A DNA stretch of 54,401 nucleotides, from contig CACKRM010000004.1 of assembly GCA_902602655.1 (NCBI GenBank), forward strand, positions 1 through 54,401, read 5' to 3'. Each line of letters opens with the position of its first letter. The first letter of the stretch is position 1. A program made the translations under genes and the position numbers. The notes under the pieces are model-generated. The model ran no database searches. It was not told the DNA's origin and saw only the letters and a list, made by a program, of their open reading frames with translations. The DNA comes from an uncultured Pelagibacteraceae bacterium. GTDB taxonomy: Bacteria; Pseudomonadota; Alphaproteobacteria; Pelagibacterales; Pelagibacteraceae. Positions 2,454-37,855 of the stretch are shown in pieces.

Positions 2454-2481
2454 GGGTTAAACTATATCATAAAATTTCGAA

Positions 2482-3060: not shown

Positions 3061-3068
3061 GTTAAAAA

Positions 3069-3128: not shown

Positions 3129-3194
3129 TAAATATCCTCTCGTAGTCTCTATATCTCCACTTAAGCGCATAAAACTTAGAAGGAGAAGTTAGAA

Positions 3195-3371: not shown

Positions 3372-3388
3372 TGAAAGGAGGTAAACTA

Positions 3389-8354: not shown

Positions 8355-8465
8355 TAATTTCTATAGATTAATTTCTAATTATAAGAATATGATACGTCAA
8401 GTTAGTTTTGTATGGTTTGTAATTTAATCCTTTTAAGTCGCAAGTATATAGAATAAGGATAATGG

Positions 8466-10421: not shown

Positions 10422-10744
10422 AAGCTTGTCAAAGTTGACAAAAGTATAGCAGAAAAGATCGTGGGCAAAACTAAATTTTTCTTACTCAAAATATATATAA
10501 ATATACAGACAACTAATACTAGGATTCTAATTACTAAGTCTGCACTAGCCAAAACTCCAGCAGGAAAAATGATAATTCTTCCAAGAAGTGCAGCAAGAGT
10601 TGAATAAGCTACTAAATTAAACCATTCAAAAATTTTTGATTTTGCGCTTACTTTTTCAGAAGTCATAGCTCCTAAAAGTCTTGAGATATAAGTAGCGAAA
10701 GAAGTAACTATGATTGCTAAAACAATTGTATTACTTAGATCCAT
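10418..10744 (-). CDS. azlD: AzlD-type branched-chain amino acid transport subunit
   Basis: A small four-helix membrane protein of about 108 residues, the usual partner of AzlC in an amino-acid exporter. I take the ATG at 10744 (MDLSNTIVLA) because AGAGGT lies just upstream at the right spacing; an alternative in-frame start at 10768 adds eight residues and lies deeper inside azlC. Family traits include the early AIIVTSFATYISRLLGA and GVLASADLVIRILVLVV. Overlaps with azlC at its 5' end (14 bases) and with glaH at its 3' end (4 bases) indicate one transcript. Confidence 0.85.
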   Translation of the reverse strand: MDLSNTIVLAIIVTSFATYISRLLGAMTSEKVSAKSKIFEWFNLVAYSTLAALLGRIIIFPAGVLASADLVIRILVLVVCIFIYILSKKNLVLPTIFSAILLSTLTSL

Positions 10745-15986: not shown

Positions 15987-20539
<4,553 letters not shown>

Positions 20540-20544
20540 TAAAT

Positions 20545-22581
20545 TTATTTGATTAATTTCTTTTTAAGTCTTGCCCACCCAGGACTTCGATATTCATTGT
20601 TATTTTCAAAAGACTCATCTTGGTTAAAATCAAAGTCATCAAGAGATTCTCGCATAGTTTCATGATTCTTTTCAACAGAGTCGTCAGGAATTTCTCCAAT
20701 AAATCTTGAAGGTAAACTTTCGATCCAATCTCCATGATAAGCTCTCTGCATTACGAAAGAAATATAAGCATTTTTTTTTGCTCTTGTGATACCCACATAA
20801 GCTAATCTTCTTTCCTCTTCTAAAGCAAAATCTCCTTTTTCATCTAAAGATTTTTGGTGAGGAAATAAACCCTCTTCCCACCCTGGTAAAAAAACTGTGT
20901 TAAATTCTAAACCTTTAGCCGCATGCATCGTCATTATATTTATTTTTGCATCTTCCCAATTTTGATCAATTGAAGTTGCTAAAGCGACATGTTCTAAAAA
21001 TCCTTGTAAATTTTCGTAGTCATGCATTGCTCTTAAAAGTTCTTTTAAATTTTCAATTCTATTTTCATTTTCAATATCTTTTTTATTTTTTAACATTTCT
21101 GAATAGCCCGACTCATCTAAAATAATCTTTAATAAATCATAATGCTTATTTAATTTTCTGAATTGCCTCCAGCCTTTGAGGTTATCTAAAAATTGTTTAA
21201 TGACAAATTTTATCTTTGGTTTAAAAGAATTTTCTTGTAATAATTTATGCGCAGCATCTTCTAGGCATAATTTATTTTTATTTGCACATTCATGAAGTTG
21301 ATTCATTGCCGCATCCCCTAAACCCCTTTTGGGTTTATTAATAATTCTTTCGAAGGCTAAATCATCAAATTTTTGGTTTACAATTCTTAAATAACATATC
21401 GCATCCTTTACTTCTGCTCTTTCATAAAACTTTATACCTCCAACAATTCTGTAGTTAATACCAACCTTTAAAAATCTCTCTTCAAATTCCCTTGTTTGAT
21501 AAATAGCCCTTACTAAAATCGCAATACTATTTAAATCTTCCTTTTTTTTATTTTTAGACTCTATTACATTTCCAATTTCCCCAGCCTCTTCCTTTCCATT
21601 TTTATAACAATTTAATTTTACTAATTCACCTGACTCTCCCTCTGACCACAATTTTTTTCCTATCCTATCTTTATTGAATGATATTAAATGCGATGCTGTG
21701 TTCAAAATATTTTTAGTAGATCTATAATTTTGTTCCAATCTAAAAACTTTACATTGTGGGTACACTTTATCAAAACTTAAAAAATTTTTAATTTCAGCAC
21801 CTCTCCAACTATATATGGACTGATCATCATCTCCTACACAACAGATATTTTTTTCTTTATTAACTAATAAATTGAGCCATTTATTTTGTATGAAATTTGT
21901 GTCTTGATATTCATCCACAAGAATATATTTAAAATTATTTACGTAAGTATCTCTAATGTCTGAATTTTTTTCAAATAATTTAACTGAATAAAGTAATAGA
22001 TCGCCAAAGTCGCAAGCATTTAAATCTTTGATTTTTTTTTGATAAACTTTATAAACTTTAAGTATTTCTCCCTCAAAAATATTCTTTTTTCTTAGTTGTA
22101 CCTCATTAGGCAGCAACCCTTTGTTTTTCCATTGATCTATCAATGAAAGGGTATATTGAGGAGAGATTTTTTTTGCATCAATATTTTCAGCTTTACAAAT
22201 ATTTTTAATCAATTTTTTTTGATCTTCAGTGTCTAGAATTGTGAAATTACTTGTTAGACCGATCGCTTCCGCATGTCGTCTCAAAAATTTAACACTAATA
22301 GAATGGAAAGTACCAAGCCAAGGTACTGAGAATGATTTTTTGTTTAAATAACTCAACACTCTAGTTTGCATTTCTTTTGCAGCTTTATTTGTGAAAGTCA
22401 CGCAAAGAATTTGATTGGGCCAAGCTTTTTTTTGATTTATTATGTACGCTAATCTAGTAGTTAACACCCTTGTTTTGCCTGATCCAGCTCCAGCTACAAC
22501 TAAATTGGGCCCTTCAGTGCTGAGAACAGCTTTTTTTTGTTCGTTGTTTAAATTGTTTAATAATTGATCTATAGAATCCAT
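20545..22581 (-). CDS. uvrD: UvrD/PcrA-type superfamily I DNA helicase
   Basis: A 3'-5' helicase for nucleotide-excision and mismatch repair. The 678 residues carry all main motifs: Walker A VAGAGSGKTRVL (about residue 31), CVTFTNKAAKEM, WLGTFHSI, ILVDEYQDTN (motif II, about 222), GDDDQSIYSWRGA (motif III, about 250), LEQNYRST (motif IV), IMTMHAAKGLEFNTVFL (motif V) and RRLAYVGITRAKK (motif VI). The C-terminus is shorter than that of E. coli UvrD and rich in acidic and Asn residues. It is transcribed away from the AsmA-like gene and probably with pepP. Confidence 0.96.
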   Translation of the reverse strand: MDSIDQLLNNLNNEQKKAVLSTEGPNLVVAGAGSGKTRVLTTRLAYIINQKKAWPNQILCVTFTNKAAKEMQTRVLSYLNKKSFSVPWLGTFHSISVKFLRRHAEAIGLTSNFTILDTEDQKKLIKNICKAENIDAKKISPQYTLSLIDQWKNKGLLPNEVQLRKKNIFEGEILKVYKVYQKKIKDLNACDFGDLLLYSVKLFEKNSDIRDTYVNNFKYILVDEYQDTNFIQNKWLNLLVNKEKNICCVGDDDQSIYSWRGAEIKNFLSFDKVYPQCKVFRLEQNYRSTKNILNTASHLISFNKDRIGKKLWSEGESGELVKLNCYKNGKEEAGEIGNVIESKNKKKEDLNSIAILVRAIYQTREFEERFLKVGINYRIVGGIKFYERAEVKDAICYLRIVNQKFDDLAFERIINKPKRGLGDAAMNQLHECANKNKLCLEDAAHKLLQENSFKPKIKFVIKQFLDNLKGWRQFRKLNKHYDLLKIILDESGYSEMLKNKKDIENENRIENLKELLRAMHDYENLQGFLEHVALATSIDQNWEDAKINIMTMHAAKGLEFNTVFLPGWEEGLFPHQKSLDEKGDFALEEERRLAYVGITRAKKNAYISFVMQRAYHGDWIESLPSRFIGEIPDDSVEKNHETMRESLDDFDFNQDESFENNNEYRSPGWARLKKKLIK

Positions 22582-22628
22582 AAAAAAAGTATTTATTTAA
22601 TTATACACTAGATAATAAAAATAAAAAA

Positions 22629-24044
22629 ATGATTAATAAAACTCAAAATATTTTGACCAACTTTGTAAAATTAAAAAAACAACTAAAACCTTTTTATTTT
22701 TTCATCATTGTACCATTCATATTGGGTGCGCTGTTTTTTACATATATTTCTATTCCAAAGTTTTTTGACTATGAGACAAAAGACAAAATTATTATTAAGT
22801 TTTTAAATGAAAGATATAATTTTAAAATAAGTGATATTGATAAAGTTACCTACAATATTTTTCCAAGGCCACATCTAAATCTAAGCAACTCAAAATTTAT
22901 TTTTTTAGAAGATGAAAATGAAAATACCGTAGAAAATTTAATTTTAATTCTTGGTATAAAAAGTCTATTAAATTATGATAATTTTAGTTTAAATAAAATA
23001 ATTCTAGACAAATCTTTTATAAAAATAGATGTGGATTATTTCAAAAAATTTCTAATCTATTTTAAGGAATTTGATAGAAAAATTCTTTTCAAGAATTCTA
23101 GTATTTCTTTTTATAAAAAAAATAAAAATATAATTTCATTCTCAAATTTAAAATTAAGCAATCAAAAAAAAAATCAAATAAATTTTGAAGGTTTGTTATT
23201 TGAAAAGTATTTCAAAGTAAATTTTAAATTAAAAGAAAAAAATAATAATGTACTTTTTTTTGTATTTCCAGATATCGGAACCAATTTAAAAATTATTTTT
23301 GAAAAAGGGAGTAATATAGATTTTGCAAAAGGATATGCAGAAACAAAAATTTTAAAAAATAAATTTAATTTTAATTTTGTCAAATCACAAGATTTGAAAT
23401 TATTTAATTCCTTTTTTAGAAATCAAATTTTAGAGTCCTCATTTGATAGTACTATTACATTTGATCCAAATTTTTACTTTAATACTAGTTTAAAAATTAA
23501 AAATTTTAATTATAAAAAGTTCAATAACTTTATTGAAAAAAATTACTTAAATGACAAAAAGTTAGTTAAACTTAATAAAAAATTGAATGGAAAAATATCA
23601 TTATTATTTCAAGAAAAAAAAAATTCTATTAAAAATTTAAAAGTAAATTTATTATTTAAGAATGGAGATATTCATATTAAAAATATAAATCTAAAACATT
23701 CAGATGTATCTTTATTATTTAACGGTTTAATTTCTAATAATGAAGGTTATCCAAAATTAAATTATGAATTAAAAATTATTGTTTACGATAAAAAAAATTT
23801 TTTAAATAAAATAGGTGTCAAAAATTCTTTACCTGACGAGACTTTAAATATTTTTTCAACTGGATCAATAAATCTACGATTAAGCAAAATAAGGTTTGAT
23901 GATTTAATTTTAGATAATAATAAATTAAACAATGAAGAAATAAAAATTTACAAAGAAAATTTTGAACAATATATTATAGGTGAGAGTATATTTGGTTTAT
24001 TTGATTTAGGTAATATTAAACAATTTACAAAAAGTATTAATTGA
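22629..24044 (+). CDS. AsmA-like membrane-anchored protein
   Basis: A 471-residue protein with one N-terminal membrane helix (PFYFFIIVPFILGALFFTYISIP, about residues 20-42), followed by a long periplasmic part rich in alternating beta strands, such as LSNSKFIFLEDEN, LNKIILDKSFIKID and IKNINLKHSDVSLLFNG. This is the look of AsmA-family proteins, thought to be beta-groove bridges for lipid traffic between membranes. The product is extremely rich in Lys, Asn, Phe and Ile. Sequence conservation is too low to choose a subfamily. It lies 26 bases before the methyltransferase operon and could be cotranscribed with it. Confidence 0.6.
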   Translation: MINKTQNILTNFVKLKKQLKPFYFFIIVPFILGALFFTYISIPKFFDYETKDKIIIKFLNERYNFKISDIDKVTYNIFPRPHLNLSNSKFIFLEDENENTVENLILILGIKSLLNYDNFSLNKIILDKSFIKIDVDYFKKFLIYFKEFDRKILFKNSSISFYKKNKNIISFSNLKLSNQKKNQINFEGLLFEKYFKVNFKLKEKNNNVLFFVFPDIGTNLKIIFEKGSNIDFAKGYAETKILKNKFNFNFVKSQDLKLFNSFFRNQILESSFDSTITFDPNFYFNTSLKIKNFNYKKFNNFIEKNYLNDKKLVKLNKKLNGKISLLFQEKKNSIKNLKVNLLFKNGDIHIKNINLKHSDVSLLFNGLISNNEGYPKLNYELKIIVYDKKNFLNKIGVKNSLPDETLNIFSTGSINLRLSKIRFDDLILDNNKLNNEEIKIYKENFEQYIIGESIFGLFDLGNIKQFTKSIN

Positions 24045-24070
24045 TATAAATTTTTAAATATTCACTTTTA

Positions 24071-24757
24071 ATGTCCGATATAAAAAAAAATTATAAAAAG
24101 GTCGTATCCAAGTATTGGCAAAAAACAGATAGTAAAATTAATGCAAGTGTTCCTAACGAAACATTAATTAGATTAATTGGTAATTTAAAATTTAGTTATA
24201 AAAGAAAAAAAGTGTTGGATGTAGGTATAGGAGATGGAGCGAATTTAATAGAATTTAAAAAAAGAGGCTCTTCAATATTTGGCATTGATATAAGAAAAAA
24301 AAAAATACTGGATTTTTGTAAAAAAAATCATTTACCAAGAAAAAATTTTTATGTGAGCGATTTAAATTATAATTTTCCTAAAATAAAAAAAAATTTTGAT
24401 TTAATCGTATGTAAGGATACTTTTTATTATTTAGATTACAATAGACATTTACCTTTTTTAAAATTTTGTAAAAAAATTTTAAATAAAAAAGGTCATTTTA
24501 TACTTCAGTTTATTCAGGCGGAATTGAAGGAAAAAAAGAAAAAAAAATTATTTGATTACTCTTTATCTAAAAACTTTAAAAAAGAAACTAAATATCATGA
24601 GAGAAACAATCCTATAAATATTTTAACACGTGGATACATAAACAATTTAATTCAATCATCAAAGTTTAAACTTAAAGTAAATATTTTTGATGTATCGACC
24701 CATTTAAAAGATAAAAAATTTGTTACAATAAATAGATATTTAGTTTTATCAAATTAA
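24071..24757 (+). CDS. Class I SAM-dependent methyltransferase
   Basis: The 228-residue product carries motif I VLDVGIGDGANLIEF (about residues 46-60), the acidic end of strand 2 in IFGIDIRKK (about 69-77), and a motif-II-like NFDLIVCKDTFYYLDYNRHL (about 110-129), which define a Rossmann-fold methyltransferase. The acceptor is not shown by the sequence. It is the first gene of a tightly packed operon with a MaoC-like hotdog, an AAC(3)-like acyltransferase, an adenylation enzyme and a carrier protein. A substrate linked to a carrier, or a sugar, is therefore plausible but unproven. Confidence 0.8.
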   Translation: MSDIKKNYKKVVSKYWQKTDSKINASVPNETLIRLIGNLKFSYKRKKVLDVGIGDGANLIEFKKRGSSIFGIDIRKKKILDFCKKNHLPRKNFYVSDLNYNFPKIKKNFDLIVCKDTFYYLDYNRHLPFLKFCKKILNKKGHFILQFIQAELKEKKKKKLFDYSLSKNFKKETKYHERNNPINILTRGYINNLIQSSKFKLKVNIFDVSTHLKDKKFVTINRYLVLSN

Positions 24758-24761
24758 ATTT

Positions 24762-25217
24762 ATGATTAAAATTCATGTAAATAAAAAAATAAAGACACCA
24801 GTAAATATAAAATCAATTAAAAAAAACTTTACATTAAAATTTAAAGTATTTATTTCTAAGAAAATTCATAGTGATTTTGAAAAACTATCAGGCGATAATA
24901 GCCCAATACACTCGAGCATCACATTTTGTAAAAAAAATGGTTATAAAAAAAAACTTGGGTATGGTTTTTTAATTAATTGTATTTTGTCTCAAATTTATGG
25001 AAAATTTTTCCCAGGTGGAAATGAACTTTGCTTAAGTCAAACTGGAATTTTTAAATCTCCCTATTTTATAGGTGATACCCTTACAATCATTTTAAAAGTA
25101 GATCATAAAAGTGTTGAAAATCAAATTGTTAATATAAGTACAGTTTTTTATAGACAAAACAAAATTAAAATTTTCCATGGGAACGGTATTTTAAAACTTA
25201 GTCTAAATAAAAGTTAA
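24762..25217 (+). CDS. MaoC-like hotdog-fold protein (putative acyl hydratase)
   Basis: The 151 residues include a MaoC/(R)-enoyl hydratase-like motif: DFEKLSGDNSPIHSSITFCKKNGYKKKLGYG (about residues 40-70), with Asp and His at the positions of the catalytic pair, followed by NELCLSQTGIFKSPYFIGDTLTI, the usual strand pair after the active helix. Such enzymes hydrate or dehydrate acyl chains on CoA or carrier proteins. The start follows the methyltransferase stop by four bases and the stop shares one base with the next start. Loss of catalysis cannot be excluded, since the sequence is divergent. Confidence 0.72.
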   Translation: MIKIHVNKKIKTPVNIKSIKKNFTLKFKVFISKKIHSDFEKLSGDNSPIHSSITFCKKNGYKKKLGYGFLINCILSQIYGKFFPGGNELCLSQTGIFKSPYFIGDTLTIILKVDHKSVENQIVNISTVFYRQNKIKIFHGNGILKLSLNKS

Positions 25218-26005
25218 TGAAAATTAAAAATATAAAAGAATTAAAAGGACCTCTTAAAAAATATATATCTATAAAAGACACCCTTTACATAGAGAGTGAT
25301 TTAACTAATTTGATCAAAAACACCGATATAATTTTTAAAAAAAAAAGTCTAAACGAAATTTTAAATTTATTTAAGTCATTAATTGGTCCGAAAGGCACTA
25401 TTATTTGTCCGTCATTTACTTATTCTTGGGGAAGAGATAAAAAAAAAAAATATTTTGACGTTAAAAGAACTAAAGCTCTAACAGGATCTTTTGCAGAATT
25501 TTTAAGAACTAAAAAAAATTCTTTCAGAACTCCTGATCCAATGTTTTCTTTTGTTGTTCATGGATTAAATAAGAAAAATTTTTTTGAATTAGATAATGAT
25601 AGTTTTGGAAAAAGAAGTGTTTTTTCAGAATTGTTAAAATCAAATGCAAAATTAATATCCTTTTGTTTAAATCAATTCGATCCCACATTTGTTCATTTTG
25701 TTGAACAATTTTATCACGAAAACATAAAAAAAATCGACTATAGATCAAAGGTTTCTTTGATGGGCAAGTTGAAAAATTATCAATCAAAAATTTATAGTAA
25801 AAAACAAGTTTGCTTATTAAGAAATGTAAATTCTAAGCTTTTTTTTGATGAAAAAAATATAAAAAAAACCCTTTTGAAAAAAAAGATGTTGAAAGTTATT
25901 AAATTAAAATTTACAAAAATTTATATAGTGAATGCTAAAGATTTTTTTCAAGAAGGATTAATGGGAATGATTAAAAACCCTCACTTTTTTGTATCAAAAA
26001 AATGA
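25217..26005 (+). CDS. AAC(3)-family N-acyltransferase
   Basis: The 262-residue protein has the fold signature of the aminoglycoside 3-N-acetyltransferase family: IESDLTNL at the first strand, SLIGPKGTIICPSFTYSWGRD (about residues 55-75), GSFAEFLRTK, FRTPDPMFSFVVHG (about 100-113) and a C-terminal EGLMGMIKNP. Members inside polysaccharide clusters acylate amino sugars rather than antibiotics, and here the gene is followed by an adenylation enzyme and carrier protein. I infer that it transfers an acyl or aminoacyl group to an amine. Nothing suggests antibiotic resistance. It shares a base with the MaoC-like gene and overlaps the adenylation gene by four bases. Confidence 0.8.
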   Translation: MKIKNIKELKGPLKKYISIKDTLYIESDLTNLIKNTDIIFKKKSLNEILNLFKSLIGPKGTIICPSFTYSWGRDKKKKYFDVKRTKALTGSFAEFLRTKKNSFRTPDPMFSFVVHGLNKKNFFELDNDSFGKRSVFSELLKSNAKLISFCLNQFDPTFVHFVEQFYHENIKKIDYRSKVSLMGKLKNYQSKIYSKKQVCLLRNVNSKLFFDEKNIKKTLLKKKMLKVIKLKFTKIYIVNAKDFFQEGLMGMIKNPHFFVSKK

Positions 26006-27546
26006 ATTGGAAATATAACTTAGGTTTAAAATTTAAAGATATTGCTCAAAAAAACAGTAATAAGTTAGCAATTATTATTGATAACAAAAGATATAATTAC
26101 AAATATTTAGAGAACAAATCATTTAAAGTTTCAAAATATTTTATGAATAATTTAAAACTAAGACCAGGTGATGTTGTTGCTTTAGATTCTACAAAGTGTA
26201 TAGCGACCTATATTTTTTTAATTGCTTGTCTAAGAATTGGTGTCGCGTATGTTTTTATAGACCCTGACAATCCTAAAGTAAGAATAAATAAAATTTTGAA
26301 GTCTGTGAAACCTAAATTTTTTTTTAGCAAAGAACAGAAGAAATCTAATAACTATTCAAATTTTGTAAAAACTGTTTCTTTTAAAAAAATTATAAGTTTT
26401 TTGAACAAAGGTAAACCAAACATAAAAAAAGATTTTCCATCATTCCCATCAACTAATATTGCTTATATTATGTTTACCTCCGGTTCAACTGGTGAACCAA
26501 AAGGAGCGGCTATTTCTCATAACAATCTTTTAAATTTCATTAGCTGGTCTCAAGAAGAATATGCAATAAAATCTTCAGATAAAATTAGCAATCTAAATCC
26601 ACTTCATTTTGATAATTCTGTTTTTGATATTTATGCTACTCTTTTTAATGGTGCCTGCTTGGTACCTTTTGCAAGTAACGAATTAATTGACACTAAAAAT
26701 TTATTAAAAAAAATTATTAAAAATAAAATTAATATTTGGTTTTCTGTTCCATCCCTATTAGTTTTAATATTAAATTTTAAAAGTTTTAATAAAAAATCTT
26801 TTCCGTATCTAAAAAAAATTATTTTCGGAGGAGAAGGATTTCCAAAAGCTAAGCTTAAAGAGTTGTATGATACGTGCAAAACAAAAAAAGTAGAACTTTT
26901 TAATGTATACGGGCCAACAGAATGTACATGTATTTGTTCAAGCTACAAAATAAATAGTAGGGATTTTGTCGGAAAAGAAATGAAGAGATTTGCGCCTTTT
27001 GGAAAAAAAATGACAAAAAATTTCTTTTATATTATTCATAAACCAAAAAAATATAAAAAAAATTCTATTGGTGAGCTACTTCTTGGCGGGGATAATGTAG
27101 GAAAAGGTTATTTTAACAATAAGAATGAAACTAATAAAAAATTTATTCAAAACCCCAATCACAACAATTTTAAAGACATTGTTTACTGCACAGGAGACAT
27201 GGTTTACAAAGATAAAAATAACAAAAATATCTATTTCTCAAATCGAAAAGATGATCAAATTAAATATCTAGGTCATCGTATAGAGCTTGGCGAAATACAA
27301 CAAAATTTGAACAAGATAAAAGAAATTAAGGAGAGTTTTGTTGAATTTAGAAAAAATAATATCAATTCAGGCGGGGAAATATTATGTTGGTTGTCACATT
27401 CATCATCTTTAAAAATCATAAAAAATAAAGTTTTTAAACTACTGCCGAAACACATGGTACCAGGAAAATTCATAGAGGTTTTAAAATTACCCAAGAATAA
27501 CAATGGCAAAGTTGATAGAAATAAATTAAAAAAACTAAAAATATGA
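26002..27546 (+). CDS. Stand-alone amino acid adenylation enzyme (DltA/NRPS A-domain type)
   Basis: The 514 residues form a complete ANL-family adenylation domain: A3 MFTSGSTGEPKGAAISHNNL (about residues 155-174), A4 FDNSVFDIY (about 198) retaining the Asp that usually binds a substrate alpha-amino group, A5 NVYGPTECT (about 303), A7 YCTGDMV, A8 RKDDQIKYLGHRIELGEIQ and A10 NGKVDRNKL with the catalytic Lys. It should activate an amino acid with ATP and load it on a carrier protein. The next gene, overlapping by four bases, encodes such a carrier. The organisation resembles dltA-dltC, but the other dlt genes are absent and other neighbours differ. Confidence 0.88.
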   Translation: MNWKYNLGLKFKDIAQKNSNKLAIIIDNKRYNYKYLENKSFKVSKYFMNNLKLRPGDVVALDSTKCIATYIFLIACLRIGVAYVFIDPDNPKVRINKILKSVKPKFFFSKEQKKSNNYSNFVKTVSFKKIISFLNKGKPNIKKDFPSFPSTNIAYIMFTSGSTGEPKGAAISHNNLLNFISWSQEEYAIKSSDKISNLNPLHFDNSVFDIYATLFNGACLVPFASNELIDTKNLLKKIIKNKINIWFSVPSLLVLILNFKSFNKKSFPYLKKIIFGGEGFPKAKLKELYDTCKTKKVELFNVYGPTECTCICSSYKINSRDFVGKEMKRFAPFGKKMTKNFFYIIHKPKKYKKNSIGELLLGGDNVGKGYFNNKNETNKKFIQNPNHNNFKDIVYCTGDMVYKDKNNKNIYFSNRKDDQIKYLGHRIELGEIQQNLNKIKEIKESFVEFRKNNINSGGEILCWLSHSSSLKIIKNKVFKLLPKHMVPGKFIEVLKLPKNNNGKVDRNKLKKLKI

Positions 27547-27788
27547 ATAAAAAAAAGACTTTAGAAAAAAAATTATCAAAAATTATAGAAAATAATTTAA
27601 TTATAAAAAAAAAGATAACAGAAAAAACCGACCTTATTTCAAATGGACTTTTAGATTCTGTTAATATTTTTTTGCTGATAAGTGAGTTAGAAAAGAGTTT
27701 TAAAATAAAAATTCCTATTAAAAATTTTGATATTAATAATTTTCGAAGTAAAAAGAGAATCCTTAATTTTTTAATAAAACAAATTTAA
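27543..27788 (+). CDS. Acyl/peptidyl carrier protein
   Basis: An 81-residue single-domain carrier protein. The pantetheine attachment motif is GLLDSVNIFLLISELEKSF with Ser39 as the expected attachment site, and the flanking helices fit (LIKKKITEKTDLISNG before, IPIKNFDINNFRSK after). Unlike fatty-acid ACPs it is lysine-rich rather than acidic, more like carriers of DltC or small NRPS systems. It overlaps the adenylation gene by four bases and ends the operon, 15 bases before the convergent fumC stop. Confidence 0.85.
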   Translation: MNKKKTLEKKLSKIIENNLIIKKKITEKTDLISNGLLDSVNIFLLISELEKSFKIKIPIKNFDINNFRSKKRILNFLIKQI

Positions 27789-27803
27789 ATACTTTAAAAA
27801 GCT

Positions 27804-29195
27804 TTATTTATTGGGCTTTGTCATCTTGAGAGGATTCATAATTTTATTATATTCTCCCTCAGTTAAAATACCTTTTTTTAATATTTCAGTTTTTAATGTT
27901 GTTCCGTTTTTGTAAGCATTTTTGGCAATTTTAGCAGCGTTATCATAACCGATTTTTGGCGACAAAGCTGTAACCAGCATTAAAGAGTTGTCTAAAAGGG
28001 ATTTAATTCTTTTCTTGTCAGCTTTAATGCCTTTTATACAATATTTTGCAAAACCATTTGAGGAGTCCGCCATTATATTTATTGATTGGAGTATATTATG
28101 AATAATTAATGGTTTAAAAACATTTAGTTCAAAGTGTCCATGCGATCCAGCCATAGTTATACCGTTATGATTTCCAATTACTTTTACACAAACCATTGTT
28201 ACAGCTTCACATTGTGTAGGATTAATTTTTCCAGGCATAATTGAAGAACCAGGCTCATTCTCTGGTAAAATCAATTCTCCGTAACCAGCTCTTGGTCCAG
28301 AACCTAAAAACCTTATATCATTTGCTATCTTCATTAAACAAACTGCTGTTGTGTTCATTGTTCCAGAAAAATTTACTATTGCATCATGAGCAGCTAAAGC
28401 AGCAAATTTATTTTTTGCTGGTTTAAAAGGAAGTTTAGTTATTTTTTTTATTTCTTTTACAATCTTTTTATCAAAGTTTTTTTTTGTATTTAAACCTGTA
28501 CCAACCGCTGTCCCCCCTTGCGCTAAATAATAAATCTCATTTAAGGCTCTTTCTATTCTTTCAATACATTTTTTCAATTGAGAATGATATCCAGAAAATT
28601 CTTGCCCTAATGTCAAAGGAGTAGCGTCTTGTAAATGAGTTCTTCCTAGCTTTACAATTTTACTAAATTGAGTGACCTTTTTTTTTAATTCTTTCTCAAG
28701 TAATTTAAGGGAAGGTAATAATTTTTTCCTTGCTTTTAAAGCTATAGCAATATGCATAGCGGTTGGAAAAACATCATTAGTTGATTGAGATTTGTTAACA
28801 TGGTCATTCGGGTGAACAGGTTTTTTTGTTCCCATTTTACCACGCATCATTTGTATTGCTCTATTTGATATAACCTCATTCACATTCATGTTAGTTTGAG
28901 TACCCGAACCTGTTTGCCAAACTTTCAGTGGGAAATGATCATTAAGTTTTCCTTTAATAATCTCATCAGCAGCTTTAATAATAAATTTAGCTATTCTTCT
29001 ATCGAGATCGTTATTTCTTGAGTTTACAATTGCTGCAGCTTTTTTTATTACCCCTATCGATTGAATTAAAATCGGTCTAACAAGAAAATCGCCTATATCA
29101 AAGTACTTATTAGATCTTTGTGTGGAAGCACCCCAATACTTATCACCAGGAACTTTTATTTTTCCTATAGAATCAAATTCTGTTCTATATTTCAT
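27804..29195 (-). CDS. fumC: Fumarate hydratase class II
   Basis: Interconverts fumarate and malate in the TCA cycle. The 463 residues match the family. Hallmarks: [18 protein letters not shown] (about residues 96-113), [23 protein letters not shown] (about 127-149), [20 protein letters not shown] (about 183-202), the flexible loop [19 protein letters not shown] (about 315-333) and [11 protein letters not shown]. The SS-loop sequence and the rest fit FumC rather than aspartase. It is convergent with the carrier-protein operon and divergent from the MazG-like gene, with a 65-base gap that may hold both promoters. Confidence 0.97.
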
Positions 29196-29260
29196 TTAAA
29201 TACCTAATTATATTAATCGTTATGTATTGTAAATAAATAACAAATAACTGTGGAGATTTT

Positions 29261-29632
29261 ATGACAAATTTTAATAGTGTTAAAAAATTCATGGAAGTCT
29301 TTGGCCAGGAAGTAAAGACCAAAGCAGAATTTCCATCTGAAAAAATAGCCGATCTAAGATATAGCCTTATCAAGGAAGAACTAGACGAATTTGGTCAAGC
29401 CTTAAAAGATAGAGACTTGAAAGAGGTAGCAGATGCTTTAACAGATATTTTATATGTAACTTATGGAGCAGGACATGCCTTTGGAATTGATTTGGATAAA
29501 TGTTTTGAGGAAGTCCAAAGATCTAATATGAGTAAGCTTGGTGAAGATGGGAAACCAATATATAATAATCAAGGAAAAGTAATGAAGGGACCAAACTATT
29601 TTAAACCTGATTTATCAAAATTTATTAACTAA
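29261..29632 (+). CDS. MazG-like nucleotide pyrophosphohydrolase
   Basis: A 123-residue all-alpha NTP pyrophosphohydrolase. The metal-binding signature is present: IKEELDEF (about residues 47-54, the ExxE pair) and, after a short linker, KEVADALTDILYVTYGAG (about 64-81, the ExxD pair). The C-terminal FEEVQRSNMSKL followed by DGKPIYNNQGKVMKGPNYF is typical of the phosphoribosyl-ATP pyrophosphohydrolase-like subgroup often seen in phages and marine bacteria. Likely role: hydrolysing noncanonical or excess nucleotides. Its exact substrate is not shown. Confidence 0.85.
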   Translation: MTNFNSVKKFMEVFGQEVKTKAEFPSEKIADLRYSLIKEELDEFGQALKDRDLKEVADALTDILYVTYGAGHAFGIDLDKCFEEVQRSNMSKLGEDGKPIYNNQGKVMKGPNYFKPDLSKFIN

Positions 29633-29638
29633 TTTATT

Positions 29639-29719
29639 ATGAGAGAAAATCTTTATTGGATATTAACTGGAATAGCACTAGGATTAATTATCTATTTGTC
29701 AGACAAATATTTTTTTTAA
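29639..29719 (+). CDS. Putative 26-residue single-span membrane microprotein
   Basis: An ATG six bases after the MazG-like stop opens a 26-codon frame (MRENLYWILTGIALG, then LIIYLSDKYFF) ending at TAA 29717-29719. The composition is a classic single membrane span with a charged N-terminus and a Lys near the C-terminus. It overlaps the end of the convergent pseI gene by 21 bases. No Shine-Dalgarno is visible, so translation would have to be coupled to the upstream gene. Without conservation data it may be a chance frame. Confidence 0.35.
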   Translation: MRENLYWILTGIALGLIIYLSDKYFF

Positions 29720-30724
29720 ATATGTCATCCTTAAAGGATTACCTTTGCTTAAATTTTTTGGTGACTTTTTTCCAAGGATTCTTTCATAGTATTTTGGTTC
29801 GAGACCATGTCCAGGCCTAATCCTTTTTATATTCTCTGTAGAAAATTTTTCTCCTTTTTTTATATTTTTTACAATAAAAATTGATCTTTTAAATAATTTA
29901 CTTTTCTCCTCTGACTTGTTTCTATAAAATTGTTTTTTACCTAATAAATCATATGCAATTTTTATATCGTTTTTAAATTCTTTTATTTTTTTACCCTTAA
30001 GAGAAAATTTTATATCTAAACCATTTTTTTGACCATCTAATGCAATATGTTTTTCTACTATTTCAGCTCCAGCTGCTATCGCAGTTATAGCCACTTTATT
30101 ATCAATAGAATGATCTGATAATCCTACTTTGCATTTAAATTTTTTTTTAAGAAATTTTATGTTGTTTAGGTTAAAGTCTTTTATTTCTGATGGATAATTA
30201 CTTACACAATATAATAAGGAAATATTTTTAGCTCCATTATTTTTTGCAGTTTTGTAAGTTAATTCAATTTGTTTCACAGATGCCATCCCAGTTGAAATTA
30301 TCATTGGTTTTTTTGTAGAGGCAATTTTTTTAATTAAAGGCAAGTCAGTCATTTCAAAAGAAGCAACTTTATAAAATGGGCATTTTAATTTCTCTAAAAA
30401 ATCAACTGCTGTTTCATCAAATGGAGTACTAAAGATTGTAATTCCAATTTTTTTTGCATAAGAAAAAAGTTTTTTATGCCAATCTAAAGGAGTGTGAGCC
30501 TTATTATAAAGATCCCACAAGCTATACCCTTTCCATAAACCGTTTTTAATTTTGAAATATTTTTTTTTGGATTTAATAGTCATCGTATCTGCAGTGTAAG
30601 TTTGTATCTTTACTGCATCAGCTCCATTATTTTTAGCACATCTGATTAATTTCTTTGCTAATTGATAATTACCACAGTGGTTTGCAGAAATTTCTGCTAT
30701 TAAAAATGGGGGTTTGAATTTCAT
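29699..30724 (-). CDS. pseI: Pseudaminic acid synthase (NeuB/PseI family)
   Basis: Condenses a hexose precursor with phosphoenolpyruvate to a nine-carbon nonulosonic acid. The 341 residues contain the NeuB TIM barrel (FLIAEISANHCGNYQLAKKL, GADAVKIQTYTADT, FSTPFDETAVDFLEKL, STGMASVKQIE, GLSDHSID, EKHIALDG) and a C-terminal antifreeze-like SAF domain (KGEKFSTENIKRIRPGHGLEPKYYE). FKIKNGLWKGYSLWDLYNKAHTP (about residues 56-78) is typical of PseI rather than NeuB or LegI. The precursor genes pseB, C, F, G and H are not in the window, so they must lie elsewhere. It starts the minus-strand surface-modification cluster. Confidence 0.88.
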   Translation of the reverse strand: MKFKPPFLIAEISANHCGNYQLAKKLIRCAKNNGADAVKIQTYTADTMTIKSKKKYFKIKNGLWKGYSLWDLYNKAHTPLDWHKKLFSYAKKIGITIFSTPFDETAVDFLEKLKCPFYKVASFEMTDLPLIKKIASTKKPMIISTGMASVKQIELTYKTAKNNGAKNISLLYCVSNYPSEIKDFNLNNIKFLKKKFKCKVGLSDHSIDNKVAITAIAAGAEIVEKHIALDGQKNGLDIKFSLKGKKIKEFKNDIKIAYDLLGKKQFYRNKSEEKSKLFKRSIFIVKNIKKGEKFSTENIKRIRPGHGLEPKYYERILGKKSPKNLSKGNPLRMTYLKKIFV

Positions 30725-30744: not shown

Positions 30745-31680
30745 TTAATATTTTGGATAGTTATTTTTAATTAACTCTAAGCTTTCTTTGGAAATTTTAT
30801 TTACCGTCTTAAAACTTGGGTAAAAAGAACTAAATTTAAATACTAATAAAAAAAAACGTTTTAAAAAACTCGGACAAGCTTTACTTAAGAAATTAAAAAA
30901 AATATTTTTTTGAGAAAATTGAACTTGAGACGTGTAATGACCCTCAACCTTAGGTGTAACCCTAACTTCTTTTTTCATAATAGAAAAATAATTTTCATTT
31001 TCTTTAATATCAAAGTATTTAATAAGAGATTTGATAAAATTTTCCTTGTTATTTTTTAATTCATTAAATTCAAAATAGGTAATTTTATTTGAAAAGTTTT
31101 TAGAAATAAAATTTGAAATCTTACTATAATCATACATTTCATAAAAAAGAGATATTTTATTGTTACCGTCTTTATTTTTGATCATATTCTCCACGAAAAA
31201 ATTAATGTCGTTCATTTTAAAACCAAAAATCTTTGTTATTCTGTAATGTACAGTAGAAAAAAAAGAGGGCACAGCTTCAGTTTGATCTCTTTTTACCGCA
31301 AAATAAAAAATTTGAGCATCTAATTGATGAAAAATTTTATTTAATCTTTTTAGTTTTTCCCAAAAATTAGATATAAAAATTTTGTGTGTATCTTTATCAA
31401 CATTTGTAGGCTGTAACCAATTTTCATTTGATATAAGTATTTTATTATTTTGATCTAACAAATTTGTTAGGAGTTTGTGGATTTCATTTAGACTTTGAGC
31501 ATTATCATTCTCACCTAGTTCGACAAATCTATCAATTTTTTCAAACAAAGGGCTTGAGTCACTATTATCATACGACCTCCCAATATATTTAATATCTTGA
31601 ATTATCGGGAACAATTTTGATTGAAGTAAAGTAGAACCTGTTTTCGGAACACCTAAGTGGATAAAGACCTTTTTTTTCAA
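30745..31680 (-). CDS. Sulfotransferase-like protein
   Basis: The 311-residue product begins with a PAPS-binding loop, FIHLGVPKTGSTLLQSKLF (about residues 5-23), matching the PKTGTT-type 5'-phosphosulfate motif, and a second region ISNENWLQP followed by YFAVKRDQTEAVPSFFSTVHYR resembles the 3'-phosphate-binding segment with its Arg and Ser. Members sulfate carbohydrates or proteins. Its neighbours include an APS-kinase-like protein, which could supply PAPS, and pseudaminic acid synthase, so a surface glycan is a reasonable but unproven acceptor. The gene is four bases from the nucleotidyltransferase upstream. Confidence 0.75.
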   Translation of the reverse strand: MKKKVFIHLGVPKTGSTLLQSKLFPIIQDIKYIGRSYDNSDSSPLFEKIDRFVELGENDNAQSLNEIHKLLTNLLDQNNKILISNENWLQPTNVDKDTHKIFISNFWEKLKRLNKIFHQLDAQIFYFAVKRDQTEAVPSFFSTVHYRITKIFGFKMNDINFFVENMIKNKDGNNKISLFYEMYDYSKISNFISKNFSNKITYFEFNELKNNKENFIKSLIKYFDIKENENYFSIMKKEVRVTPKVEGHYTSQVQFSQKNIFFNFLSKACPSFLKRFFLLVFKFSSFYPSFKTVNKISKESLELIKNNYPKY

Positions 31681-31684
31681 AATA

Positions 31685-32056
31685 TTATAGCTTTCCCTCT
31701 TTCCTCATTTTTGCACGGATTTTAGTGGCTGAAATCTTTTGAATTTCCTCAGGTAAAACTATTTCCTCAATTTTATAACCAACTCCTCTTCCATAACATA
31801 TATTGGTTATATTTGGGACCAGCATTACTTTAAATCTCCCCCGGTGTTTTGGGTTTAACTTTTCCTCAATGTTTTTTTTTACAGTTTCAAAATCGAAAGG
31901 GTTGTCATCAACTCCTTGGACGTCTCTTATTTGAATACAAACTTGACCTGTTTTTTTTACTATTTCCTCAAATAACGCAAAGTGACCATCATGAAAAGGC
32001 TGCCATCTACCTAACATTTGTGCTGTTGGTTTTTTATTATCCCACTTATAACTCAT
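31685..32056 (-). CDS. Small HxGH-type nucleotidyltransferase
   Basis: The 123-residue protein carries GRWQPFHDGHFALFEEI (about residues 17-33), the HxGH signature of the nucleotidylyltransferase superfamily, and KISATKIRAKMR near its end, matching the ISxTxIR nucleotide-binding motif. This pattern is seen in NMN, pantetheine-phosphate and glycerol-phosphate nucleotidyltransferases; ATP sulfurylase has a related fold. It overlaps the APS-kinase-like gene by four bases and precedes the sulfotransferase, so a sulfate-activating role is tempting. The short length and NMNAT-like motif make that only a hypothesis. Confidence 0.75.
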   Translation of the reverse strand: MSYKWDNKKPTAQMLGRWQPFHDGHFALFEEIVKKTGQVCIQIRDVQGVDDNPFDFETVKKNIEEKLNPKHRGRFKVMLVPNITNICYGRGVGYKIEEIVLPEEIQKISATKIRAKMRKEGKL

Positions 32057-32460
32057 TTTAAATCTTCTTTAATCTTTTGAGCCCAAACTTTAGCATCTTG
32101 TGATGTAACATGAAAATTATATTTTTCAGGTTTTACAAACATTTGATTTGTATCTTCAAATCTACCTGATTTTATGGTGTCTACCCAAATTACGTAATCT
32201 GCTGGAAATAGTTTTCTAGCTGCTGGAGTAGGGCATATAAAATCTGCAATTACATTGTTTCCCTCTTTTTTAAGCTTTATAGCATTATCAGCCATTCTTT
32301 TTGATTGTCTCTTTCTACCTTCCTCTGAGAAGTCCCAATCGTTTGCTGCTTTTCGAATTTCATCAGCATTAAGTCTTTTTGCATTCATTAGAGGCGCCAA
32401 CTCATCTGCCAAAGTTGTTTTACCAGCCCCAGGTAAACCCATTATTAAAATTATTTTCAT
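32053..32460 (-). CDS. Adenylylsulfate-kinase-like P-loop kinase
   Basis: The 135-residue product has Walker A MGLPGAGKTTLADEL (about residues 6-20), then LNADEIRKAANDWDFSEEGRKRQS (about 30-53) and NNVIADFICPTPAARKLF (about 68-85). These match the DGDNxR, FSxxDR and ISP segments of CysC APS kinases, which make PAPS from APS. It is shorter than the usual 200 residues and lacks part of the C-terminal lid. Its overlap with the nucleotidyltransferase gene and closeness to a sulfotransferase suggest PAPS supply. It could equally phosphorylate another small molecule. Confidence 0.75.
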   Translation of the reverse strand: MKIILIMGLPGAGKTTLADELAPLMNAKRLNADEIRKAANDWDFSEEGRKRQSKRMADNAIKLKKEGNNVIADFICPTPAARKLFPADYVIWVDTIKSGRFEDTNQMFVKPEKYNFHVTSQDAKVWAQKIKEDLK

Positions 32461-33768: not shown

Positions 33769-33859
33769 TAAATCTAATAAAGAGTTTATATATTTTTTTT
33801 CCTTATTTTGGTATTCTTTTATACTTGCTCAATATGTTCTAAATTTGTTAGATATATAT

Positions 33860-34750
33860 ATGAACTATTCAGAAATAATTAAAAACAAAATTAATTCTCA
33901 TAAATTAAACTGGGAAACTAAGCCATTTCCTCATGCAGTAATAGATGACTTTTTACCAAAAGAGATTTTTGAAAAAATAGTATCTGCTCTTAATAATTCA
34001 GAAGACTTTAAAGACGTAAAAAAAAGATTTTCTTCTAATGTTGAATTAAATAAGAAAGTCTATGGAGACAATGATTTGAATGAAATTCTTAAATTACCTG
34101 TAAATATTTTAGGCGGTGTTAATTTTAAAAAACTTTTTGAAAATTATTTAGATGGACAAAAAATGGTTTCAATGTGTGATTGGCCGGAGTATGGTGGAGC
34201 CTATCCTTTTCATCAAATGACCAACAATGGAATGTTAGGGTCCCATGTTGATCACTCTCATTCACAGTCTGGTGATTTACATGTCGCAAACTCAATTTAT
34301 TACGTTTCACCAAAATGGAACTCTAATTGGGGAGGAGAAACAATTTTATTTAGTAAAGCTGGATTAAAAATTGAAAAAAAGATTGAACCAAAACCTAATA
34401 GAGTAATTTTATTTATTCACTCTTCGTCTTCTTTTCATGGAGTTAATAAGATCACTTCACCAAACGGCACAAAAAGAAGCACATATTACATGGATTATTA
34501 TATTAACGACAAAGACTTGCCCCACATGAAAAAAACACTTGGAAGCAAGGGGTGTAAAAAACTTAATTATTCATGTCATACTACTTCCTTTGTTCCCTTT
34601 TTTCCATTGGGTTTGAAAAGTTTCAAGTTTGAGTCCCTTTTCAAGAAAAGTTCATATCCTTATCTTAAAGTTTTTTTTACATATCTTCTTACTAGATTTT
34701 TATTAAGTTATGAGTTGGCAAAAAAAATCAGAAAGAAGAATTTTAATTAA
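33860..34750 (+). CDS. 2-oxoglutarate/Fe(II)-dependent oxygenase (prolyl-4-hydroxylase-like)
   Basis: I choose the ATG at 33860 (MNYSEI); the frame opens at a TTG at 33845. About 296 residues. PFPHAVIDDFLPKEIFEKI near the N-terminus is the usual opening of this family, and the double-stranded beta-helix core has the facial triad: His and Asp in LGSHVDHSHS (about residue 130) and the distal His in SSSFHGVNKI (about 195), with the 2-oxoglutarate Arg in KRSTYYMDYY. WGGETILFSKAG is also typical. The substrate is unknown. A hydrophobic C-terminal segment (VFFTYLLTRFLLSYEL) is unusual and may tether it to the membrane. It lies six bases before the acyltransferase gene. Confidence 0.82.
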   Translation: MNYSEIIKNKINSHKLNWETKPFPHAVIDDFLPKEIFEKIVSALNNSEDFKDVKKRFSSNVELNKKVYGDNDLNEILKLPVNILGGVNFKKLFENYLDGQKMVSMCDWPEYGGAYPFHQMTNNGMLGSHVDHSHSQSGDLHVANSIYYVSPKWNSNWGGETILFSKAGLKIEKKIEPKPNRVILFIHSSSSFHGVNKITSPNGTKRSTYYMDYYINDKDLPHMKKTLGSKGCKKLNYSCHTTSFVPFFPLGLKSFKFESLFKKSSYPYLKVFFTYLLTRFLLSYELAKKIRKKNFN

Positions 34751-34756
34751 AAATAA

Positions 34757-37384: not shown

Positions 37385-37855
37385 TTAGTAGTTTTTTAGG
37401 TATTTTCTATTTAATCGCCATCTTGAACCTTCTCTGACAATAAAGCCCACACAGTTTTCTGCTCCACATTTGCAAACATGATCCTTATAATCGCAGTCAT
37501 AACTAAAGCCATAGTCGTAAGATAATTCTTCATTTTTTTTTATATCTCTCATTGCGGAAATCCATATAGCTGATTTGTATTCATCAAGGACTTCACAATT
37601 AGGATTACAAGAATGATTTATCAGTCTAGCCGTATTATATTTAAAATCCCCATCTAAAAGATATTTTTTATTAAGAGTGAATAAATAAGTAATATCATAT
37701 CCGTATTTAGAATTTACATCAGCTTGTTTATGAGTAATTTTTTTGCCCTTATATTCAATTATTTTTTCACCTTTTTTTATATCTCTAGCCGCGCAAAGGC
37801 CTCTTCGATGGATATTTGATTTGATAACTTTATAGGCTTTCTTAATTTTTTTCAT
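37385..37855 (-). CDS. SET-domain lysine methyltransferase-like protein
   Basis: A 156-residue SET domain with a post-SET zinc site. Motifs: RRGLCAARDIKKGEKIIEYKG (about residues 17-37), the catalytic knot ARLINHSCNPNCE (about 76-88), NEELSYDYGFSYD (about 108-120) and post-SET CKCGAENCVGFI (about 128-139). Together with the upstream Cys of the NHSC block these would bind zinc, as in eukaryotic histone methyltransferases. In bacteria such proteins methylate lysines of ribosomal or nucleoid proteins or are effectors; the target here is unknown. It lies just beyond the outermost, decayed copy of the tmRNA-derived repeat. Confidence 0.9.
   Translation of the reverse strand: MKKIKKAYKVIKSNIHRRGLCAARDIKKGEKIIEYKGKKITHKQADVNSKYGYDITYLFTLNKKYLLDGDFKYNTARLINHSCNPNCEVLDEYKSAIWISAMRDIKKNEELSYDYGFSYDCDYKDHVCKCGAENCVGFIVREGSRWRLNRKYLKNY

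What the first reader, a model, noticed from the sequence alone, without database searches (positions are those of the whole stretch)
24071..27788. Minimal adenylation/carrier-protein pathway with acyltransferase, hotdog and methyltransferase
Five overlapping genes include a full amino-acid adenylation domain (A3-A10 motifs, amino-group Asp and A10 Lys present), a carrier with the pantetheine Ser, and an AAC(3)-like transferase of the type seen in sugar modification. No condensation or thioesterase domain is present. The simplest reading is: activate an amino acid, load it on the carrier, modify it (methylation, hydration or dehydration), and transfer it to an amine. Surface-glycan genes follow nearby, including pseudaminic acid synthase. 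I know of no named pathway with this exact set.
Basis: partly seen in the sequence, partly recalled or inferred. Interest (0 to 1): 0.72.

Follow-up and report, generated by a model that had tools for sequence, protein, structure and literature searches.

The report
Amino-acid cassette for surface sugars
A marine SAR11-type bacterium carries a compact five-gene cassette that probably activates an amino acid, alters it on a carrier protein and attaches it to a surface sugar; related cassettes with other loading enzymes occur in unrelated bacteria beside the same putative sugar-deacylating gene.

Summary
Five coupled genes (24071-27788, +) encode a methyltransferase, a MaoC-type hotdog with its Asp/His pair, an AAC(3)-fold acyltransferase, an amino-acid-type adenylation domain and a carrier protein. 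Comparison adds three things. (1) AAC-adenylation-carrier is a conserved core: a genome outside the class has the same order, also overlapping, and an identical ten-residue pocket code; methyltransferase and MaoC are accessory. (2) AAC(3)-like genes go with DUF4910, the Cj1295 family: of 150 relatives 17 have AAC, 21 DUF4910, 13 both; AAC lies near DUF4910 in 42 of 80 fetched loci from several phyla. Carriers there sit beside three kinds of charging enzyme: AMP-forming ligase, FkbH or KAS III. The window has pseudaminic acid synthase 2 kb and DUF4910 5 kb away. (3) Cj1295 is required for the dimethylglyceroyl group on N5 of Campylobacter pseudaminic acid (published). Best reading: a carrier-dependent acyl-exchange system putting a tailored aminoacyl group on an amino sugar, probably a nonulosonic acid. 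No biochemistry was done; amino acid, acceptor, deacylation and both tailoring steps are inferred. DUF4910 beside ACP and N-acetyltransferase genes was tabulated in 2014: new variant of a known kind.

The parts
24071..24757 (+). SAM-dependent methyltransferase, tailoring enzyme of unknown target
   Evidence: Methyltransf_25 E 2.4e-10, Methyltransf_11 E 2.9e-10; no NCBIfam model above its cut-off; weak hits to solved methyltransferases, best 6mro E 5e-7
24762..25217 (+). MaoC-type hotdog, (R)-enoyl-thioester hydratase/dehydratase-like, Asp and His of the PhaJ pair kept (GDNSPIH)
   Evidence: phmmer 1iq6 E 1.1e-9, 5cpg E 1.8e-9; MaoC Pfam 20.1 bits, under cut-off
25217..26005 (+). AAC(3)-like (Antibiotic_NAT) N-acyltransferase with His160 and Glu163
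   Evidence: PF02522 72.2 bits; His160 in 38 of 39 and Glu163 in 39 of 39 DUF4910-linked relatives of 230-320 aa; AlphaFold pLDDT 94.1, AAC-IIIb 6mb6 TM 0.76
26002..27546 (+). stand-alone amino-acid-type adenylation enzyme, pocket code DNFSIGVCIK
   Evidence: TIGR01733 301.2 bits, DltA NF003417 281.6 bits; code by profile alignment
27543..27788 (+). carrier protein with phosphopantetheine Ser (LDSVN)
   Evidence: DltC NF003464 E 2.4e-8; PF00550 17.1 bits, under cut-off; a carrier at the same place in G544
29699..30724 (-). pseudaminic acid synthase-type NeuB (PseI), probable source of the acceptor sugar
   Evidence: TIGR03586 448.1 bits, above cut-off; 72% identical to the PseI that overlaps DUF4910 in L119
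32464..33768 (-). DUF2172/DUF4910/HTH_47 protein, Cj1295 family, proposed remover of the resident N-acyl group
   Evidence: PF16254 287.3, PF09940 99.6, PF16221 60.4 bits; PDB 3k9t E 2e-90; co-occurrence with AAC
30745..32460 (-). three genes between PseI and DUF4910 (311 aa and 123 aa without Pfam match; 135 aa APS_kinase/AAA_33-type P-loop protein)
   Evidence: membership in the pathway not tested

Best explanation
The cassette builds a carrier-bound, tailored aminoacyl group and hands it to the amino group of a surface sugar. Steps: (1) the A-domain adenylates an amino acid and loads it on the carrier thiol; (2) the methyltransferase (N- or O-methylation) and the MaoC protein (hydration or dehydration at C2-C3) tailor the acyl group on the carrier; (3) the AAC(3)-like enzyme moves it from the pantetheine arm to a sugar amine through its His/Glu pair. 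The sugar is probably a pseudaminic-type nonulosonic acid or precursor made with the nearby PseI, and the amine is probably freed by the DUF4910 protein, which would remove the resident acetyl. Shown: gene content, coupling, families, conserved residues, a conserved core in a genome outside the class, and the association of DUF4910, AAC, carrier and charging genes in loci from several phyla. Inferred: amino acid identity, both tailoring reactions, acyl transfer, the deacylation step and the acceptor.
For: Core conserved: G544 (outside the class) has AAC 8022-8843, A-domain 8843-10411, carrier 10408-10665 on one strand; its A-domain is 36% identical yet the code DNFSIGVCIK is the same at ten of ten positions. 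Four of the five parts recur in SAR11 single cell AG-447-N18 (L119): A-domain-AAC-methyltransferase-carrier in one run, about 4 kb from a PseI that overlaps DUF4910. Amino-type A-domain, carrier, AAC and DUF4910 also in AH-324-G08 (L112, with formyltransferase and VOC-type protein) and G401 (L100). AAC and DUF4910: 17 and 21 of 150 genomes, 13 shared, odds ratio 51, Fisher p 2e-10; 16, 20 and 12 of 149 without the own genome, p 1e-9. In 80 DUF4910 loci 42 have AAC, 29 of these within 300 bp; a carrier is found in 24 of 42 AAC loci against 4 of 38 others, p 1.5e-5. Function of the family: Cj1295 (DUF2172, M28-like) is required for the 5-N-dimethylglyceroyl form of pseudaminic acid, and its authors propose that it cleaves the C5 acetamido group.
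Against: No step is biochemically tested. The cassette is separated from PseI and DUF4910 by fumC and a small gene with weak MazG-like hits. G544 has neither NeuB nor DUF4910 within the 20 kb read, so the acceptor need not be a nonulosonic acid. A-domains with nearly the same code occur without a detected AAC in G483 and G622. No PseC above cut-off and no phosphopantetheinyl transferase match (PF01648) in the own genome, which is 62% complete. The DUF4910 has Asn196 where CA_C2195 has the zinc ligand Asp195, and Das et al. note the loss of M28 catalytic residues. 29 of 80 DUF4910 loci show none of the partners and 9 of 38 without AAC still have a charging gene; many contigs are short.
Confidence: 0.55

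Rival explanations
1. The triad decorates a different amino sugar (for example a 4-amino-4,6-dideoxyhexose) of an exopolysaccharide or O-antigen, and the nearby PseI/DUF4910 belong to a separate pathway in the same glycan island.
For: G544's triad has no NeuB or DUF4910 in 20 kb and lies near genes that look like galE and polysaccharide export (by eye); G483's A-domain and carrier lie with genes that look like dTDP-sugar genes (by eye).
Against: Among SAR11 relatives and in loci from other phyla AAC goes with DUF4910, and L119 has nearly the same set beside PseI-DUF4910. NeuB lies in 38 of 80 DUF4910 loci, so not in all.
Confidence: 0.25
2. Dlt-like system: the amino acid is passed from the carrier to a polymer or lipid as an ester, or is released as a small metabolite; the AAC(3)-like protein is not the terminal transferase.
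For: Among NCBIfam equivalogs and subfamilies DltA is second to TIGR01733 for the A-domain, and DltC is first for the carrier; G622 pairs a related A-domain (code DNFAMGCCIK) with a 492-aa protein and a carrier, which may be a Dlt-like set (not checked by family search).
Against: No DltB or DltD-like gene in the cassette; the AAC gene overlaps the A-domain gene in window and G544; scores are far under the DltA/DltC cut-offs (281.6 of 476; 33.9 of 68).
Confidence: 0.12
3. The AAC(3)-like protein is a simple acetyl-CoA-dependent sugar N-acetyltransferase (or antibiotic-resistance enzyme) that happens to sit by an A-domain/carrier pair.
For: Fold matches AAC-IIIb and BA2930, solved with CoA or acetyl-CoA; 14 of 42 AAC loci show no carrier or charging gene in the flanks read.
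Against: 12-16% identity to the solved enzymes listed; carriers in 24 of 42 AAC loci against 4 of 38 without AAC, three kinds of charging enzyme, and the same order with the A-domain in G544.
Confidence: 0.08

Closest known systems
Campylobacter jejuni Cj1295-dependent 5-N-(2,3-di-O-methylglyceroyl) pseudaminic acid on flagellin (Hitchen et al. 2010, PMC3068675, passages read)
   Same: Cj1295 is a DUF2172, M28-like protein (PMC6321876, passages), as is the window protein; Table 1 of Hitchen lists an N-acetyltransferase, Cj1296/7; an unusual methylated N-acyl group stands at C5 of pseudaminic acid. That carrier and FkbH genes follow Cj1295 is recalled and was not tested here.
   Different: The acyl group is glyceric acid, so no amino-acid A-domain is needed; the SAR11 cassette has A-domain, MaoC and one methyltransferase; no flagellin target is shown here.
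Clostridium acetobutylicum CA_C2195 (DUF4910) neighbourhood, Das et al. 2014 (PMC4000134; outline, passages, sections 6 and 10 read)
   Same: DUF4910 near a NeuB-type synthase, 'aminosugar N-acetyltransferase', acpA and an 'N-acetyltransferase + HAD phosphatase' gene; transacylation or deacylation of a sugar amide suggested.
   Different: The sections read do not set out a carrier-dependent acyl exchange or exchangeable charging modules, and Table 2 has no A-domain.
DltA/DltC D-alanylation
   Same: Stand-alone A-domain plus small carrier; among the nearest models.
   Different: No DltB/DltD in the cassette, scores under cut-off, Gly276 where DltA has a Cys (DltA residue recalled), AAC(3)-type partner instead.
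Enterobacterial flagellin glycosylation islands with ACP, LuxE, LuxC, CaiC ligase, FabG, FabZ (PMC4875605, passages and section 9 read)
   Same: Acyl-carrier enzymes inside sugar-modification islands; resembles the SAR11 AAC-ligase variant of G076 (L053).
   Different: Read there as a liposugar component; ligases of acyl type, no amino-acid A-domain named.

Membership tests
Amino-acid adenylation domain (TIGR01733) | Score above the curated cut-off of 317.4 bits | tested here: not met
   301.2 bits over positions 2-409 of 409; best model in the library
Amino-acid adenylation domain (TIGR01733) | Amino-group-binding Asp and A10 Lys, core motifs A3-A10 | tested here: met
   Asp204, Lys503 and motifs by reading and alignment
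AAC(3)/Antibiotic_NAT (PF02522) | Score above cut-off; fold; His/Glu pair | tested here: met
   72.2 of 25 bits; AAC-IIIb TM 0.76; His160, Glu163
AAC(3) equivalog NF033082 (drug resistance) | Score above cut-off 270 | tested here: not met
   22.3 bits
DltA/DltC | Model cut-offs (476 / 68) and DltB/DltD partners | tested here: not met
   281.6 and 33.9 bits; no such partners in the cassette
Carrier protein (PF00550) | Pfam cut-off 20.8 bits | tested here: not met
   17.1 bits; Ser in DSV present; named a carrier from context and weak hits
MaoC/PhaJ hydratase | Asp/His catalytic pair | tested here: met
   Alignment to 1iq6; role of these residues recalled; Pfam score under cut-off
NRPS assembly line | Condensation and thioesterase domains | tested here: not met
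   None among the five genes
Cj1295-type N-acyl exchange on pseudaminic acid | DUF2172/DUF4910 protein and pseudaminic acid synthase in the locus | tested here: met
   287.3 bits; PseI 448.1 over 340.25
Cj1295-type N-acyl exchange on pseudaminic acid | Full pseudaminic acid pathway (PseC) in the genome | tested here: inconclusive
   Best 183.5 bits, cut-off 423.5; genome 62% complete; other Pse enzymes not searched
Cj1295-type N-acyl exchange on pseudaminic acid | Acyl group found on the sugar | not testable with these tools
   needs mass spectrometry
Zinc site of DUF4910 as in CA_C2195 | His189, Asp195, His324 | tested here: not met
   His190 and His328 kept, Asn196 in place of Asp195; Asn there in 78 of 81 aligned, but the scan used CHPS[ML]ANN as one of two patterns

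The most novel reading that the evidence does not exclude
DUF4910 plus AAC(3)-like plus carrier is a general, modular acyl-exchange machine: it strips the resident N-acyl from a nonulosonic acid and replaces it with a designer acyl group made on a carrier, with interchangeable charging modules (amino-acid A-domain, acyl ligase, FkbH glyceryl loading, KAS III chain building). In SAR11 it gives aminoacylated, methylated nonulosonic acids, a surface chemistry I know of no report for in this group.
Probability: 0.45. Interest if true: 0.78.

Novelty: new variant of a known kind. Interest (0 to 1): 0.62.

Why it matters
Some bacterial nonulosonic acids carry odd N-acyl groups, and for the dimethylglyceroyl case the papers I read name only one gene. 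A shared gene set with an acyltransferase and exchangeable carrier-charging modules offers a candidate for each step and may let the N-acyl group be predicted from the charging gene. In SAR11 it would be a compact way to change surface sugars without remaking the sugar pathway, plausibly under phage pressure (speculation).

Tried and rejected
Substrate from the pocket code: DNFSIGVCIK matches no code I recall; no amino acid is claimed. Viral contigs with the A-domain: 19 pattern matches, none a relative. Plasmids: no match at E 1e-60. Phage records: 27 with a match at E 1e-20; the 15 rows shown have 26-32% identity; not pursued. Methyltransferases near FkbH: a three-sequence profile found none within 6 kb in 9 of 9 FkbH-AAC loci; the profile is too weak to mean absence, but the glyceroyl model gets no support from it. 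Pfam gave no match for the carriers of L112, L126 and G401 and NCBIfam none at E 1e-10 for those of L119 and L112; these rest on my own carrier profile. Resistance-enzyme and NRPS-fragment readings were set aside (see rivals and membership). Genus-wide search: only G000 and G083 of 169 have an A-domain at E 1e-28 or better, and G083's is an acyl-ligase type (TIGR03098 466.7 bits, under its cut-off 592), so not the same enzyme. Of 15 ligases over 300 aa in the 80 loci 5 have Asp at the first pocket position; one of these (L138, the same locus as G083) is the acyl type and one (L149) lies in a 1417-aa protein. The 183-aa ligase hit of L134 was left out of that count. Two further papers (PMC13130089, PMC13317340) and PMC3765264 were only searched for terms and gave nothing used here.

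The local profiles were built partly from hits in the same loci. Fisher tests ignore shared descent.
Full report
WHAT IS THERE. The five genes are real and at the stated coordinates. They look translationally coupled: gap 4 bp, then overlaps of 1, 4 and 4 bp. Families: SAM methyltransferase; MaoC-type hotdog; PF02522 (Antibiotic_NAT) acyltransferase; AMP-binding enzyme whose best models are TIGR01733 (301.2 bits, cut-off 317.4) and DltA (281.6, cut-off 476); carrier protein nearest DltC. Hotdog and carrier miss their Pfam cut-offs (20.1 of 27, 17.1 of 20.8). The hotdog aligns to PhaJ 1iq6 (E 1.1e-9) with an Asp and a His in the places of the catalytic pair (role of the PhaJ residues recalled). 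The AAC model is confident (pLDDT 94.1, 39 sequences) and its best solved matches are AAC(3) enzymes: 6mb6 E 6e-15, TM 0.76; BA2930, YokD and FrbF also match.

SITE. The cassette sits between an AsmA-like gene (22629-24044; name by eye, no Pfam match) and fumC (27804-29195). In G074 (L070) the aligned ends of these two lie 12 bp apart, and in G007 (L066) fumC is followed by uvrD after 57 bp: empty sites. In G007, G074 and L109 a DUF4910 gene lies about 2 kb beyond the MazG-like gene on the other side of fumC; in the window it is 2.8 kb beyond. Cassette G+C is 23.3% against 29.5% for the window; the neighbouring AsmA-like gene is 17.9%, so composition proves nothing.

A CONSERVED CORE. The A-domain pocket code by profile alignment is DNFSIGVCIK. 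Of 385 genomes of the class 21, the own included, have an A-domain at E 1e-40 or better, best other G483 (36%); of 398 of the phylum 4 at 1e-55: the own, G544 (36%), G622 (32%) and G595 (29%). G544 has AAC-A-domain-carrier in the window's order with overlaps of 1 and 4 bp, an identical code, and the AAC with the highest score to the window's among those compared. L174 (single cell AG-426-G09) has the identical code at 41.7% identity and DUF4910 next to it, on a 4.5-kb contig that shows no AAC. G483 has DNFSVGVCIK with a carrier and SDR and acetyltransferase-like genes (by eye); G622 has DNFAMGCCIK with a 492-aa protein and a carrier. So the pocket is kept across distant hosts; the AAC partner is not always there.

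THE LINK TO DUF4910. Among 150 genomes (own included) PF02522 occurs in 17 and PF16254 in 21, both in 13 (2.4 expected); odds ratio 51, Fisher p 2e-10, and p 1e-9 with the own genome left out. In 9 of the 13 both lie on one contig within 10 kb; in 4 (G004, G012, G074, G076) they are on different contigs. With local profiles 42 of 80 have an AAC within the flanks. These split: AAC+carrier+AMP ligase 11, AAC+carrier+FkbH 8, AAC+carrier+KAS III 4, AAC+carrier 1, AAC+FkbH 1, AAC+KAS III 1, AAC+ligase 1, AAC+MaoC 1, AAC only 14. Of the 38 without AAC, 29 have no partner, 4 a ligase, 3 carrier+FkbH, 1 carrier+KAS III, 1 FkbH+MaoC. Where both genes were seen (41 loci) 29 are within 300 bp, 28 of them on one strand; NeuB lies in 38 of 80. 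Of the 41 loci longer than 20 kb 20 have AAC. Carriers: 24 of 42 with AAC, 4 of 38 without (p 1.5e-5); chargers 26 of 42 against 9 of 38 (p 7e-4). Pfam confirmed a sample: AAC of L125, L126, L188, L100, L112, L119, L150; FkbH_N in L126; KAS III in L164. Of four carriers sent two had PF00550 just under its cut-off (L125, L188) and two no match. Hosts with AAC include Vibrio coralliilyticus, Aneurinibacillus, Brevibacillus, Lysinibacillus, Clostridium, Cloacimonadota and Chloroflexi records.

AMINO-ACID VERSIONS. 10 of 15 long ligases in these loci lack the Asp, and the three of them sent to NCBIfam fit acyl-CoA ligase models best (L125, L131, L139). Amino-type A-domain plus carrier plus AAC plus DUF4910 occurs in the window, in L112 (AH-324-G08: AAC, formyltransferase, A-domain, VOC/glyoxalase-type protein, carrier, then DUF4910), in L119 (AG-447-N18: A-domain, AAC, methyltransferase, carrier) and in G401 (L100). 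In L119 a PseI 72% identical to the window's overlaps DUF4910 by 4 bp. Thus four of the five window parts, and both sugar genes, recur together; only MaoC is missing. MaoC-type genes occur by AAC and DUF4910 or FkbH elsewhere: L150 (Chloroflexi, E 8e-14 to the window's; PF01575 75.3 bits), G110, and as a MaoC-SDR protein in G004 and G012.

FUNCTION. Hitchen et al. 2010 (PMC3068675, passages) show that Cj1295 is needed for the di-O-methylglyceroyl derivative of Pse5Ac7Ac on C. jejuni flagellin, at the C5 nitrogen, and propose that Cj1295 cleaves the C5 acetamido group so that it can be replaced. Cj1295 is listed as a DUF2172, M28-like protein (PMC6321876, passages); the window protein has DUF2172, DUF4910 and HTH_47 and matches CA_C2195 (PDB 3k9t, E 2e-90). 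For CA_C2195 Das et al. 2014 (PMC4000134, sections 6 and 10; conclusions passage) tabulate a NeuB-type synthase, 'aminosugar N-acetyltransferase', acpA and an N-acetyltransferase-HAD gene, name Campylobacter among holders, and suggest transacylation or deacylation. That FkbH proteins load glyceryl groups on carriers is recalled. Putting these together, FkbH loci would make glyceryl groups, KAS III loci 3-oxo/hydroxyacyl groups and A-domain loci aminoacyl groups, each passed on by AAC. This joint model is my inference.

LIMITS. Nothing was tested in vitro. The acceptor is inferred: G544 lacks NeuB and DUF4910 in the 20 kb read. The own genome shows no PseC above cut-off and no phosphopantetheinyl transferase match but is 62% complete. 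The DUF4910 has Asn at one zinc-ligand position, as do 78 of 81 aligned proteins including it (one scan pattern contained this Asn), so deacylation by this subfamily is uncertain. Targets and order of the methyltransferase and MaoC steps are unknown. Statistics ignore phylogeny, and the two samples overlap.

NOVELTY. Ten searches of the held papers (three gave no paper) showed me, in listings and passages, no description of an A-domain-carrier-AAC(3) set acting on nonulosonic acids. Only open-licence papers are held, so this is weak evidence of absence. The DUF4910-ACP-acyltransferase neighbourhood itself was in print in 2014, and acyl-carrier enzymes in flagellin islands in 2016 (PMC4875605, section 9). 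Hence: new variant of a known kind, with a bolder general model that the evidence allows.

Noticed in passing
L053 (G076) 1027-9655, also L064 (G036) and L055 (G068): A ten-gene AAC cassette with an AMP ligase, LuxE-like and LuxC-like proteins, FabA/FabZ-like hotdog, radical SAM enzyme, SDR, split transketolase and carrier (names by eye except ligase, AAC and carrier); L064 and L055 show similar gene sizes. Recalls the ACP/LuxE/LuxC/CaiC sets of enterobacterial flagellin islands.
   Followed up: partly
L112 (AH-324-G08) 6142-9922: Formyltransferase (PF00551, 58.5 bits) and a VOC/glyoxalase-type protein sit with the amino-acid A-domain, carrier and AAC, suggesting an N-formyl-aminoacyl group.
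   Followed up: partly
L056/L164 (G142, AG-898-E04): AAC-KAS III-SDR (by eye)-carrier next to DUF4910: perhaps a 3-hydroxyacyl group built on the carrier.
   Followed up: partly
L119 4721-6671: Pair resembling acylating acetaldehyde dehydrogenase and 4-hydroxy-2-oxovalerate aldolase (by eye), divergent from the A-domain cassette.
   Followed up: no
L063 (G041) 3130-4434 and 9233-10633: Two DUF4910 genes in one locus; the second is a divergent copy (107.8 bits) with HPYQANDGI where the others have HPSMANNEL, so it keeps the zinc-ligand Asp.
   Followed up: no
window 33845-36769: 2OG-Fe(II) oxygenase followed by an acyltransferase-3/SGNH fusion, perhaps further surface-glycan tailoring genes.
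   Followed up: no
window 37385-37855: A SET-domain protein (PF00856, E 7e-27), unexpected to me in a small bacterial genome.
   Followed up: no
window 18842-29632 against L066, L070, L109: A stretch of peptidase-like gene (by eye), uvrD, fumC and MazG-like gene borders DUF4910-bearing islands in four genomes, in addition to the islands by the 23S rRNA in G083 and G003 (rRNA judged by spurious ORFs, by eye).
   Followed up: partly
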